From Elusimicrobiaceae bacterium (GTDB taxonomy: Bacteria > Elusimicrobiota > Elusimicrobia > Elusimicrobiales > Elusimicrobiaceae), in contig JAFVFN010000015.1 of assembly GCA_017475405.1 (NCBI GenBank), positions 1-64,000 on the forward strand: a DNA stretch of 64,000 nt, written 5' to 3'. Position numbers and translations under genes: made by a program. The notes under the pieces are model-generated. The model did no database searches and was not told the DNA's origin. It saw nothing but the letters and a program-made list of their open reading frames with translations. Shown here piece after piece: positions 6,607-54,194 of this stretch (positions are counted from its first letter, which is position 1; every line of letters begins with the position of its first letter).

Positions 6607-6873
6607 AATATGTCTCCGTTTTTGTATTCCAAATTTTTGTTTTGGGAAACATACCAAAAACGGCTGCTATAACCGGGTGCGTTCTACGGTACCCATTATA
6701 TAACAGCCGTGGCCTATCGGTCCCGCCGCTGGCGGAAACGATAAACACTCAGCGCAAACAAATAGGTTTATAAGGTCTATTTGCTTGCACCTAAAACAGC
6801 TGTCTTTGGCGTAGAACGCAGTTTATAAACTACCCGTATCCTTCTGATACGATTCCAAAAACAGATAATTTGT
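6607..6873 (-). ncRNA. Structured pilin leader RNA, copy L1
   Basis: Extended -10 (TGC-TATAAT, 6880-6885) then about 265 nt of leader. Helices on the minus strand: P1 CUGUUUUUGG (6855-6864) with CCAAAGACAG (6800-6809); hairpin CGUAUC/GAUACG inside it; pseudoknot GCGUUCUACG (6810-6819) with CGUAGAACGC (6679-6688), which sits in the loop of the last hairpin; long hairpin around GCAAGCAAAUAG/CUAUUUGUUUGC; terminator-like stem ACGGCUG (6704-6710)/CAGCCGU (6660-6666), then UUUUU. The same plan recurs in five more copies. Confidence 0.75.
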
Positions 6874-6945
6874 ACCTCTATTATAGCATAAAACATGCCC
6901 CTTTGAATAAATGCTATAATATAAACAATAATAAGGAGACTAACT

Positions 6946-7794
6946 ATGTGGGATTATACAGATAAAGTCATGGATCATTTTAAGAACCCACGCAATGTGG
7001 GTTCTATTCCCAATGCAGACGGTACCGGCCAGGTAGGCAGTCTGGTCTGCGGAGACGCGTTGCGTCTAACGATTAAAGTCAATAAACAAACCGACGTCAT
7101 CGAAGATGCTAAATTTGAAACTTTCGGTTGTGCTAGCGCCATTGCTTCGTCCTCTATTTTAACCGAAATGGTCAAAGGAAAAACCATTGCTGATGCCAGT
7201 AAAATTACCAATCAGGATATTGCCGATGCGTTGGGCAGTTTGCCGGCCGAAAAAATGCACTGCTCGGTTATGGGCATGGAAGCCCTGGAAGCTGCCGTGC
7301 AAAGCTACCGTCAGGGTGGTAAACCGGTAATTTTTGAGCAGGAAGCCGAAAAGATTGTCTGTAAATGTTTTAATGTATCTGAAGAGGCTATTATTAAGGC
7401 CATCCGCACCAACCATTTAACCACGGTAGAAGACGTGACCCATTTTACCAAAGCGGGTGGTGCCTGCGGACAATGCAAAGGCGAGATTCAAAAGATTTTA
7501 GATAAGGTCAATGCCGCGAGTGTCGCTCCTGCCCAAGCGCCTAAAACATACGCACAAATGACGCTGGTGGAAAAAATCAAAACCATTGAAAAAGTACTGG
7601 AAGAAGAAATCCGTCCCAAATTGAACTTAGACGGCGGTTCGGTGGAACTGGTGGATTTGTCCGGCAATACCGTCAAAGTACGTTTGGTCGGTATGTGTCA
7701 CGGATGTGCCGGCGCGCAGGGAACACTTAAAAACTTTATTGAAAAAGTTATTCAAGACCGGGTGAGTAAAGACCTGGTAGTGGAGCAAGCCTGA
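6946..7794 (+). CDS. nifU: NifU-type Fe-S cluster scaffold protein
   Basis: 282 aa with the full three-domain NifU layout. An IscU-like domain (1-125) has the cluster Cys in SLVCGD, FGCAS and KMHCSV. A BFD-type [2Fe-2S] domain (about 135-185) has CKCFNVSEE and GGACGQCKGE. A C-terminal NifU domain (about 205-275) has GMCHGCAGAQ. It assembles Fe-S clusters with sulfur from the adjacent NifS, whose ATG follows after one base. AAGGAG ribosome site. Nothing here suggests nitrogen fixation; in anaerobes this pair serves general cluster assembly. Confidence 0.95.
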   Translation: MWDYTDKVMDHFKNPRNVGSIPNADGTGQVGSLVCGDALRLTIKVNKQTDVIEDAKFETFGCASAIASSSILTEMVKGKTIADASKITNQDIADALGSLPAEKMHCSVMGMEALEAAVQSYRQGGKPVIFEQEAEKIVCKCFNVSEEAIIKAIRTNHLTTVEDVTHFTKAGGACGQCKGEIQKILDKVNAASVAPAQAPKTYAQMTLVEKIKTIEKVLEEEIRPKLNLDGGSVELVDLSGNTVKVRLVGMCHGCAGAQGTLKNFIEKVIQDRVSKDLVVEQA

Positions 7795-7795
7795 T

Positions 7796-8965
7796 ATGCC
7801 AAAAGTCGTTTATTTGGATAACAACGCTACTACGCAATGTGCCCCGGCTGTGGTAGAAGCGATGCTGCCGTATTTTTCTGAAAAGTATGGCAATGCCTCC
7901 AGTATGCACAGCTTTGGCGGTGAAAACCGCCACGTTATTGATCAGGCCCGTCATACGGTAGCCGAATTTATCGGGGCTGCCTATGATGATGAGATTATTT
8001 TTACTTCGTGTGCCTCTGAAAGTGACAACACAGCCATTTTTTCAGCCGTGCGGGTCAACCGTAACAAAAAACATATTATTACCTCAGCTGTAGAACATCC
8101 GGCGGTTATGGAACCGTTTCGTTATCTGCAGACCCAGGGTTACCGTGTAGATTATATCGGGGTAGACGAACAGGGCCGTTTTGACATGCAACAGTTTAAA
8201 TCAGTGCTTGATGAAGATACGGCACTGGTGTCTGTCATGTGGGCCAACAGTGAAACCGGTACGATTTTCCCGATCGCGGATATTGCCCAGTTGGCCCATG
8301 AAAAAGGTGCTTTGTTTCATACCGATGCCGTGCAGGCTGTGGGGAAGATCCCTGTCAACGTACAAGAGGCCGGTGTGGATATGCTTTCGTTATCGGCGCA
8401 TAAGTTTCACGGTCCCAAAGGGATCGGAGTGTTGTACGTGAAACGCGGGACGCGGTTTTTGCCATATTTGATGGGCGGTCATCAGGAAAAACACCGTCGG
8501 GCCGGTACCGAAAATGTACCCTACATTGTAGGGATTGCCAAGGCGTCCGAACTGGCCCAAAAACGCTTAAGTGACGGCATAATGGATAAAGTAGCCGCAC
8601 TGCGCGACCGGTTGGAACAGGGTATTTTAAGCCAAATCTCCGATGTTAAAGTAAACGGCGACCAGGAGCACCGTGTACCCAATACAACCAATATCAGTTT
8701 TGGCTATATTGAAGGCGAGTCCATTTTGATGTATCTGAATGATTTTGGGATTTGTGCCTCTTCCGGTTCTGCCTGCACATCGGGTTCTTTGGAACCGTCA
8801 CATGTGCTGCGGGCCATGAAAGTACCGTTCCAGTTTGCACACGGGTCTATCCGGTTTTCCCTGTCGGATCAAACGACGCAGGAAGATATTGATCTGGTGC
8901 TTAAAGAGTTGCCTCCCATTATCAAGCGGCTGCGTGAGATTTCACCGTTTTCACGCATGGCGTAA
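7796..8965 (+). CDS. nifS: Cysteine desulfurase NifS
   Basis: 389-aa PLP enzyme that takes sulfur from cysteine as a persulfide for NifU. The start YLDNNATTQ is the family signature, with HTDAVQAVGK near residue 180-190, the PLP lysine in SLSAHKFHGPKG (about 200) and the active Cys loop in SSGSACTSGSLEPSH (about 322-336). It is next to nifU and probably shares its transcript. Confidence 0.95.
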   Translation: MPKVVYLDNNATTQCAPAVVEAMLPYFSEKYGNASSMHSFGGENRHVIDQARHTVAEFIGAAYDDEIIFTSCASESDNTAIFSAVRVNRNKKHIITSAVEHPAVMEPFRYLQTQGYRVDYIGVDEQGRFDMQQFKSVLDEDTALVSVMWANSETGTIFPIADIAQLAHEKGALFHTDAVQAVGKIPVNVQEAGVDMLSLSAHKFHGPKGIGVLYVKRGTRFLPYLMGGHQEKHRRAGTENVPYIVGIAKASELAQKRLSDGIMDKVAALRDRLEQGILSQISDVKVNGDQEHRVPNTTNISFGYIEGESILMYLNDFGICASSGSACTSGSLEPSHVLRAMKVPFQFAHGSIRFSLSDQTTQEDIDLVLKELPPIIKRLREISPFSRMA

Positions 8966-53398: not shown

Positions 53399-53408
53399 AT
53401 TGTTAATT

Positions 53409-53918
53409 TTACGGGTACACTACCGGCATTCCTAAACTAGCACAGACTGCCTCTGACAATTTAGACTGGTTATATACTGAACAATGTCGGTAACCGTTTT
53501 GTGCAGGATTTGTGTAATGTTGGGGGCGAAAGGTAATATGTATGGTTCTTTCGTTTTTGCAATCATCGAATGAATAATTATGAGCAGGGCAATAGTTTAA
53601 ATTTACTAAACCGTTAGTATAAATACCTAATAAAAAGTAAGGACCACATGTGAAGTTACCTTGAGAATCTATAATTTCTATACATTCTGCGGGTAGATTA
53701 ATATCTAATTGTTCGATATTATTAGTATATTCACCATTGGCCAAGTAATAGTTTTCTTGGGCTTGAGACAGGCTCGCTAATAATGGTATCATGGCGCCCA
53801 CGCGTGATTTGGCAACCGCAACTTTATATTGCGGCAAGGCAACTGCTGCCAGTATTCCTATAATTAATACAACTACCAAGAGCTCTATGAGCGTGAATGC
53901 TTTTCTATTGGTTTTCAT
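53409..53918 (-). CDS. Type IV pilin-like protein 11
   Basis: 169-aa prepilin, leader MKTNRKA, then FTLIELLVVVLIIGILAAVA. NYYLANGEYTNNIEQLDINLP is the shared segment. Variable part with six Cys (AECIE, FTCGP, YCPAHN, DDCKNE, RHCSV, AVCAS). AAAGGAGAAAAGTT site. It lies behind leader L6. Confidence 0.88.
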   Translation of the reverse strand: MKTNRKAFTLIELLVVVLIIGILAAVALPQYKVAVAKSRVGAMIPLLASLSQAQENYYLANGEYTNNIEQLDINLPAECIEIIDSQGNFTCGPYFLLGIYTNGLVNLNYCPAHNYSFDDCKNERTIHITFRPQHYTNPAQNGYRHCSVYNQSKLSEAVCASLGMPVVYP

Positions 53919-54175
53919 AACTTTTCTCCTTTAATCTTTCAATTTTCTGTTATGGAATCCCCAAATAAAACGGCTACTATAGCTAGGCATCTAACCGACC
54001 CCACACTATAACAGCCGTAGTCTATCATCCAATGGATGATAAACATTCAGCATAACATGCAAGGCTTGCAATTCCCATTATGTTACGCTTCCAAAACGGC
54101 TGTTTTTGGCGGTTAGATGACTACTTAATTTAGTGTCCCGCATTCTTCATACGGTTCCAAAAACAGCTAAATTGT
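53919..54175 (-). ncRNA. Structured pilin leader RNA, copy L6
   Basis: Extended -10 TGT-TATAAT (54182-54187). P1 CUGUUUUUGG (54157-54166)/CCAAAAACAG (54100-54109). Hairpin CCGUAU/AUGCGG within. Pseudoknot CAUCUAACCG (54110-54119) with CGGUUAGAUG (53988-53997). Stem AGCGUAACAU/AUGUUAUGCU. Hairpin UAUCAUCC/GGAUGAUA. Final stem ACGGCUGUU (54010-54018)/AGUAGCCGU (53968-53976), then UUUU. The gap 53919-54244 contains only this leader and the recA terminator. Confidence 0.75.
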
Positions 54176-54194
54176 AAAAATATTATAACATAAA

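What the first reader, a model, noticed from the sequence alone, without database searches (positions are those of the whole stretch)
6607..54187. A six-copy family of pseudoknotted leader RNAs in front of pilin genes
Seen: regions 6607-6873, 14458-14718, 17596-17829, 31355-31601, 39305-39538 and 53919-54175 (minus strand) share one architecture. It has a -10 box, P1 (CUGUUUUUGG/CCAAAAACAG type) enclosing one or two hairpins, a pseudoknot strand directly next to the P1 3' strand, a conserved (C)GUUUUAGG, a long stem, a conserved (G)AAUGUUUA before a second hairpin, and a final ACGGCUG/CAGCCGU hairpin with the pseudoknot partner in its loop. P1 covaries in L4 (G-C pairs changed to A-U). Hairpins keep their place but change sequence. 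I matched it to none of the riboswitch classes I can recall (c-di-GMP, T-box, cobalamin, TPP, SAM). Inference: a new cis-regulatory RNA.
Basis: partly seen in the sequence, partly recalled or inferred. Interest (0 to 1): 0.93.

Follow-up and report, generated by a model that had tools for sequence, protein, structure and literature searches.

The report
Private-key RNA switches before pilin genes
One bacterial genome carries 127 copies of a folded RNA that matches no family in the Rfam catalogue, nearly all just in front of pilin genes; each copy holds its own roughly ten-letter pairing key and is predicted to switch its gene on or off by choosing between two competing shapes.

Summary
They are the window's share of 127 full-length copies in this 1.68-Mb Elusimicrobiota genome; 122 of 127 precede pilins. 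Rfam has no match at gathering score. Helices P1-P5 covary strongly. The "pseudoknot" strands pair in 127 of 127 copies, with 127 different sequences.

Main change: the last hairpin (P5) looks like a terminator (5 or more T in 7 nt in 119 of 127), and its 5' strand can pair with the P1 3' strand instead. That helix (P0) plus the pseudoknot strands form one nested helix that excludes P1 and P5. By computed energy it beats P1 before the terminator is complete (121 of 121) and loses to P1 plus P5 at full length (117 of 121). So each leader is most likely a transcription attenuator. The P3 loop holds a self-complementary six-mer in 92 of 127 copies (17.9 expected), which suggests kissing dimers. 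Relatives carry 0-46 copies, also before outer-membrane, polysaccharide and DNA-methylase genes, and a sister class (type II). The signal, and any effect on expression, are untested.

The parts
6655..6864 (-). leader RNA 1: P1 6855-6864/6800-6809, P4 6714-6744, P0 strands 6797-6804/6702-6710; TATAAT at 6880-6885
6810..6820 (-). leader 1 PK strand UGCGUUCUACG; partner PK' at 6678-6688 CGUAGAACGCA
6751..6791 (-). leader 1 P3 with palindromic loop UUAUAA
6660..6710 (-). leader 1 P5, terminator-like hairpin with U-run
6121..6606 (-). pilin-like gene (N_methyl) behind leader 1
14499..14695 (-). leader RNA 2: P1 14686-14695/14627-14636, P4 14554-14570, P0 strands 14624-14631/14542-14550; TATAAT at 14725-14730
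14638..14647 (-). leader 2 PK strand CCUUAUCGCG; partner PK' at 14521-14530 UGCGAUAAGG
14577..14618 (-). leader 2 P3; its loop is not palindromic (exception)
14504..14550 (-). leader 2 P5, terminator-like hairpin
13945..14457 (-). pilin-like gene (N_methyl) behind leader 2
17631..17819 (-). leader RNA 3: P1 17810-17819/17759-17768, P4 17687-17703, P0 strands 17756-17763/17675-17683
17769..17777 (-). leader 3 PK strand CUUGGAAAU; partner PK' at 17655-17663 AUUUCCAAG
17710..17750 (-). leader 3 P3 with palindromic loop UUAUAA
17636..17683 (-). leader 3 P5, terminator-like hairpin with U-run
17101..17595 (-). pilin-like gene (N_methyl) behind leader 3
31393..31579 (-). leader RNA 4: P1 31570-31579/31516-31525 (A-U changed), P4 31449-31470, P0 strands 31513-31520/31437-31445
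31525..31534 (-). leader 4 PK strand AAUAAGAGGU; partner PK' at 31417-31426 ACCUCUUAUU
31477..31508 (-). leader 4 P3 with palindromic loop CUGCAG
31398..31445 (-). leader 4 P5, terminator-like hairpin with U-run
30857..31354 (-). pilin-like gene (N_methyl) behind leader 4
39339..39529 (-). leader RNA 5: P1 39520-39529/39467-39476, P4 39396-39411, P0 strands 39464-39471/39384-39392; TATAAT at 39545-39550
39477..39486 (-). leader 5 PK strand CAAUAGAAGU; partner PK' at 39363-39372 ACUUCUAUUG
39418..39458 (-). leader 5 P3 with palindromic loop UAAUUA
39344..39392 (-). leader 5 P5, terminator-like hairpin
38798..39304 (-). pilin-like gene (N_methyl) behind leader 5
53965..54166 (-). leader RNA 6: P1 54157-54166/54100-54109, P4 54022-54042, P0 strands 54097-54104/54010-54018; TATAAT at 54182-54187
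54110..54119 (-). leader 6 PK strand CAUCUAACCG; partner PK' at 53988-53997 CGGUUAGAUG
54049..54089 (-). leader 6 P3 with palindromic loop UUGCAA
53970..54018 (-). leader 6 P5, terminator-like hairpin with U-run
53409..53918 (-). pilin-like gene (N_methyl) behind leader 6

Best explanation
Each leader is most likely a transcription attenuator: a folded RNA predicted to take one of two mutually exclusive shapes, one ending in a terminator-like hairpin shortly before the start codon (likely off) and one that would use up half of that hairpin (likely on). Shape B is P1 with its hairpins, P3, P4 and the hairpin P5 with its U-run. Shape A is one long nested helix: the PK strand and the adjoining end of the P1 3' strand (AACAGCCG) pair with the P5 5' strand (CGGCUGUU) and with PK', closing a three-way junction with P3 and P4. 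PK is private to each copy, and by computed energy it is what lets shape A win while the RNA is still being made; shape B wins once the second half of P5 is out. Shown by sequence: the helices, their covariation, the private keys, the U-run, the place before genes. Inferred: that P5 terminates, that shape A is the on state, and that something shared by all copies (a signal or protein acting on the conserved P0/P3/P4 junction, or dimers through the palindromic P3 loop) tips the balance.
For: Covariation of P1-P5 far above controls: 36 of 51 pairs with changes on both sides, score 0.467 against 0.232 shuffled and 0.07-0.11 slid (94 of the 127 copies). PK complementary in 127 of 127 copies, 127 different keys, against about 3% of mismatched pairs reaching 9 bp. 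P0 conserved in the own genome and kept with wholly different letters in distant copies. U-run after P5 in 119 of 127. Energy crossover: P0+PK lower than P1 before the terminator 3' strand in 121 of 121, P1+P5 lower at full length in 117 of 121; with PK blocked P0 wins in 27 of 121. Promoter-like TATAAT within 80 nt upstream in 70 of 127 against 24 of 127 shuffled; start codon 20-39 nt after the RNA in 94 of the 120 copies with a scripted pilin start.
Against: No transcript, 3'-end or expression data. Within the own genome the P0 shuffle control is weak, because the strands hardly vary: 98.1% of cells paired against 97.9% shuffled, score 0.187 against 0.181; the support there is the slid control (16-56% paired), two double changes and the pyrimidine-only variation. 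One copy elsewhere (L051) has the same P1-breaking change as L088 without the partner change in P0. The U-runs are short and often interrupted. Folding energies ignore pseudoknots, so a form with P1, P5 and PK together is not excluded. Type II lacks P4, so the three-way junction cannot be needed in every member.
Confidence: 0.72

Rival explanations
1. One reading: one stable pseudoknotted fold in which P1, P5 and PK exist together, an aptamer-like RNA that binds a small molecule and may act on translation or RNA stability rather than on termination.
For: P1, P5, the inner P5 stem and PK each covary or stay complementary, and full-length energies favour P1+P5, to which PK could be added as a kissing pair. 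Many genes under one element is what a riboswitch regulon looks like.
Against: P0 is conserved and kept across clades with different letters, which this fold does not need; so is the U-run. No known aptamer matches.
Confidence: 0.15
2. An RNA-dimer element: the palindromic P3 loops kiss between two transcripts, and dimerisation is the main function, with folding changes secondary.
For: P3 loops hold a self-complementary six-mer in 92 of 127 own copies (17.9 expected) and in 49 of 66 tested copies elsewhere (9.7 expected), while P4 and P2-region loops are at background.
Against: 35 of 127 own copies lack a six-mer and 8 lack even a four-mer, six of those with CGACGG; the type II copies in the alignment show no such loop by eye. 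No dimer was measured.
Confidence: 0.08
3. A DNA-level element: the hairpins act as single-stranded DNA, as a recombination or insertion site that travels with gene cassettes, and are not a regulator.
For: Copy number swings from 0 to 127 among relatives, and the element stands before unrelated genes in different genomes.
Against: Fixed orientation and short distance to the start codon, many G-U wobbles, promoter-like sites upstream and a U-run after P5. Copies are dispersed over 27 of 30 contigs. No recombinase was searched for.
Confidence: 0.05

Closest known systems
Transcription-attenuating riboswitches and leaders with competing terminator and antiterminator helices (general kind, from established knowledge)
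   Same: A U-run hairpin before the gene, and an upstream strand that can pair with its 5' half
   Different: No known aptamer or leader peptide; the deciding helix has a different sequence in each copy; 127 copies in one small genome
c-di-GMP riboswitches before type IV pilin genes (recalled; none opened here)
   Same: A structured leader with a pseudoknot-like contact before pilin genes; the genome has three GGDEF domains
   Different: No Rfam match to these classes; different architecture
HIV-1 dimer initiation loop (recalled)
   Same: A six-base palindrome in an apical loop, with 5' purines in many classes
   Different: Sits in a bacterial leader, with many alternative palindromes; dimerisation untested
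Phase-variable surface and restriction-modification loci (general knowledge; only listing and start of abstract of PMC11868660 seen)
   Same: A similar range of target genes: pilins, surface polysaccharide enzymes, outer-membrane proteins, DNA methylases
   Different: The switch proposed here is in RNA; DNA rearrangement was neither seen nor searched for

Membership tests
Any of the 4227 Rfam 15 families (including c-di-GMP, T-box, cobalamin, TPP, SAM) | covariance-model match at the curated score | tested here: not met
   Window: only tmRNA and a tRNA, away from the leaders. 20 further loci: two sub-threshold matches, glmS (25.9 of 37 bits, outside the leader in L163) and SpF66_sRNA (22.3 of 42 bits, E 0.32, overlapping L186).
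Intrinsic-terminator attenuator | G+C-rich hairpin followed by a U-run before the gene | tested here: met
   P5 paired in nearly all cells; 5 or more T in 7 nt in 119 of 127.
Intrinsic-terminator attenuator | a conserved competing (antiterminator) helix | tested here: met
   P0: 114-119 of 119 copies pair at each of its first seven positions, 104 at the eighth, 58 at the ninth; kept in divergent copies; within-genome shuffle control weak.
Intrinsic-terminator attenuator | read-through changes with a signal | not testable with these tools
   needs transcription assays
Riboswitch | direct ligand binding | not testable with these tools
   none
RfaH/LoaP-type processive antitermination | a specialised NusG paralogue | tested here: not met
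   one NusG-domain match in the genome, which is 93% complete
Kissing-loop dimer (DIS-like) | self-complementary apical loop | tested here: met
   92 of 127 six-mers against 17.9 expected; control loops at background
Kissing-loop dimer (DIS-like) | the RNA dimerises | not testable with these tools
   none
Phase-variable locus | heritable on/off expression between cells | not testable with these tools
   only the kind of target genes was seen

The most novel reading that the evidence does not exclude
An RNA-level counterpart of phase variation: more than 125 independent bistable leader switches in one genome, each locked by a private key so that it answers to its own transcript, with palindromic P3 loops joining transcripts into dimers; together they choose which pilins, surface polysaccharides, outer-membrane proteins and DNA methylases a cell shows, without any DNA rearrangement.
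Probability: 0.18. Interest if true: 0.96.

Novelty: new variant of a known kind. Interest (0 to 1): 0.87.

Why it matters
If true, this is a large cis-regulatory RNA class absent from Rfam, at a copy number in one genome that is exceptional to my knowledge, found in two families of Elusimicrobiota. It would show how a 1.7-Mb genome with at least 150 pilin-like genes could control many of them one by one. It also offers 127 natural variants of one switch in which one helix is free in sequence but fixed in pairing, a ready-made set for testing co-transcriptional folding and RNA self-recognition.

Tried and rejected
Phage carriage: four IMG/VR contigs hold the exact 18-base pattern but none gave a model match. 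Selection for mutually unlike keys: not supported; near-identical keys are somewhat more frequent than by column shuffling (70 against 45 pairs with at most two differences), although keys are far more diverse than P3 (413) or P2 (1564) segments. Tree of the 127 copies: at least 87 changes of the palindrome class on a quick tree, but the rows are short and diverged, no shuffled baseline was made, and I rest nothing on it. A formal pair count for PK was not made, because PK' does not align in register; the mismatched-copy control stands in. The first PK count for other genomes had misplaced windows and was redone, where some rows are still mis-anchored and were kept. The promoter scan is crude: its positions are spread, and the conserved ACAATT next to P1 also resembles a -10 box. 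The third covariance model, the protein-structure and the fold-search tools were not used. Literature: listings only; no paper was opened. None listed appears to describe this RNA, but the library lacks most subscription journals; the E. minutum genome paper is recalled, not seen.
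Full report
Observation. The six stretches were aligned in RNA orientation. Each has P1 (CUGUUUUUGG/CCAAAAACAG type), a P2 hairpin and usually a second one, a strand (PK) directly 5' of the P1 3' strand, a long stem P3, a hairpin P4, and a last hairpin P5 that holds PK' in its loop; the helices pair in most of the six, with misaligned columns in the outer part of P3. 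Three of the six were folded alone: z-scores -7.9, -7.2 and -6.2. All six stand immediately before ORFs with the N_methyl pilin motif. Rfam gives only tmRNA and a tRNA in the window, away from the leaders, and nothing at a gathering score in 20 further loci with divergent copies, where two weak sub-threshold matches occur.

Number. A covariance model of the six (R1) finds 127 full-length copies in the window's own genome (1.68 Mb, 30 contigs, 93% complete), all at E <= 4e-14, plus 12 short matches that lie antisense on such copies (150 of 513 candidates scored, so a lower bound). They lie on both strands and on 27 of 30 contigs. I fetched all 127. Downstream, 120 show the pilin N-terminal pattern by script and two more (L033, L139) by reading the printed translation: 122 of 127. 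Four of the other five precede polysaccharide-type enzymes: glycosyltransferases at L133, L157 and L162 and a TupA-like protein at L152; for L161 none was assigned. The genome has at least 150 pilin-like N-termini (all 150 scored of 257 candidates matched). Three of them in the window, near 14851, 44561 and 57965 on the plus strand, have no full-length R1 match upstream.

Covariation. On 94 of the 127 copies, 36 of 51 pairs have changes on both sides, 95.4% of cells pair (83.5% shuffled, 38-49% slid), and the covariation score is 0.467 against 0.232 shuffled and 0.07-0.11 slid. The alignment was fitted to the model and shuffles ignore relatedness, so I lean on the slid control and the size of the effect. 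One further pair, J3/4 position 3 with J4/5 position 3, is G-C 71, A-U 47, G-U 7 and A-C 0 in the 125 copies with standard junction lengths; two were dropped.

The key. PK and PK' pair over 7-14 bp in 127 of 127 copies with G-U allowed, 9 bp or more in 124; of 16,002 mismatched copy pairs about 3.1% reach 9. With Watson-Crick pairs alone, 126 of 127 reach 7. All 127 keys differ. In 77 distinct copies from other genomes the best run is 8 bp or more in 74 (some rows mis-anchored), and copies that look orthologous share a key (for example L041, L064 and L207, all before pilins). Keys are much more diverse than segments of P3 or P2, but not more unlike each other than chance.

The competing helix. 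The last five bases of the P1 3' strand plus the next three (AACAGCCG) are complementary to the P5 5' strand (CGGCUGUU). This helix, P0, together with PK:PK', is nested: it encloses P3 and P4 and excludes P1 and P5. In 119 own copies with full-length P1 strands, 114-119 pair at each of the first seven positions, 104 at the eighth and 58 at the ninth. In one search, 98.1% of cells pair against 16-56% slid, with two double changes against 0.2 shuffled; but the shuffled percentage is 97.9 and the score 0.187 against 0.181, so within this genome the shuffle control adds little. L088 has a change that breaks P1 and the partner change that keeps P0; L051, in another genome, has the same break without the partner change. 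L161 and the pair L087/L131 change all three strands together. In six divergent copies P0 was sought by script: 8-10 of 10 positions pair in five, with other letters (AAAUAAUCGU type, AAAUAGUCAU), and for L187 the script printed no strand, though a 9-bp P0 was found.

Terminator. P5 is followed by 5 or more T in 7 nt in 119 of 127 copies. The start codon lies 20-39 nt beyond the modelled RNA in 94 of the 120 copies with a scripted pilin start.

Energies. For 121 copies (six with unequal P1 strands left out) the P0+PK form is lower than the P1 form in 121 of 121 while the terminator's 3' strand is missing (mean 6.6 kcal/mol); at full length P1+P5 is lower than P0+PK in 117 of 121 (mean 6.5). 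With the PK strand blocked, P0 beats P1 in 27 of 121. This is what a co-transcriptional switch with PK as the deciding part would show. Pseudoknots are not scored.

The palindromic loop. In P3 the apical loop holds a self-complementary six-mer in 92 of 127 copies (17.9 expected from shuffled loops) and a four-mer in 119 (67.1 expected). P4 loops (12 of 127 against 10.1) and P2-region loops (27 of 251 against 21.3) are at background. Fourteen six-mers occur, led by UUAUAA (23), UUCGAA (19), UAAUUA (17) and UUGCAA (9); six copies carry CGACGG instead. Elsewhere 49 of 66 copies have one (9.7 expected; five copies skipped by the parser, type II rows and duplicates left out). Kissing dimers are the obvious reading, untested.

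Spread. R1 matches in 85 of 294 Elusimicrobiota genomes at E <= 1e-5 (only eight candidates per genome scored). With fuller scoring, 19 chosen relatives have 1-46 copies and 18 others 0-23, three of them none. A sister class (type II), without P4 and with other letters, came out of divergent matches; its model R2 matches in 65 of 340 genomes at E <= 1e-4. In the window all R2 matches below E 1 are parts of the same six leaders. In the own genome R2 adds three clear copies, C16:48842, C29:104972 and C2:9973, the first and third just upstream of pilin matches. The single-contig genome G034 has one type II copy, before a zinc-ribbon membrane protein whose N-terminus resembles, by eye, that behind type I copies L062 and L067. 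In the named collection all 58 fetched stretches titled Elusimicrobiota that hold an exact piece of the leader match R1, many from rumen or faeces; 21 titled as other taxa do not.

Targets. Of 77 distinct copies in other genomes, 23 precede pilins by the translations, one has no ORF in reach, 45 next ORFs were scanned against Pfam and eight were not. The next ORF was chosen by a simple rule and is up to 390 nt away in a few cases. Of the 45: 3 outer-membrane beta-barrels, 9 polysaccharide, glycosyl or LicD enzymes, 5 DNA methylases or restriction-type proteins, 2 sulfatases, 2 TRL-like, one each of polymorphic-membrane-protein repeats, nuclease and phage-collar type, 5 with other domains (two of them below the curated score), 16 without a family. 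Such lists are typical of phase-variable loci (general knowledge).

What it works like and what it is. It works like an attenuator with terminator and antiterminator: both sequence-level features are met, the functional ones are untested. It is a member of no Rfam family tested. One NusG makes an RfaH- or LoaP-like factor unlikely; three GGDEF domains leave a nucleotide messenger possible. Absence from print rests only on the listings named under Tried and rejected.

Noticed in passing
P3 loops of the leaders, e.g. window 39418-39458 and 31477-31508: Apical loops are self-complementary six-mers of many kinds (5 of the 6 window copies), enriched five-fold over shuffled loops.
   Followed up: yes
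L175, L176, L177, L186, L187, L316, L331: Sister leader class (type II) without P4, with P0 AAUAAUCG:CGAUUAUU type and a GGCGGCGA-type terminator; also before pilins, GT8 enzymes, an EcoRI-type methylase and others.
   Followed up: partly
window 14851-15369, 44561-45004, 57965-58468 (+): Pilin-like genes in the same window without a full-length leader match upstream; natural comparison genes.
   Followed up: no
L041, L064, L207; also L062, L067, L201: Copies in different genomes share the same PK key, while all 127 paralogous copies of the own genome differ.
   Followed up: partly
L174 (1268-1455 and 1501-1699, minus strand): Two different leader copies in tandem before an EcoRI-type methylase gene.
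   Followed up: no
G055, G034, G126 against G000, G013, G059: Type I copy number runs from 0 to 127 within one family (0 and 127 within one genus), so gain or loss is fast.
   Followed up: no
window 18402-18745 (+): tmRNA gene (131 bits), unrelated to the leaders.
   Followed up: no
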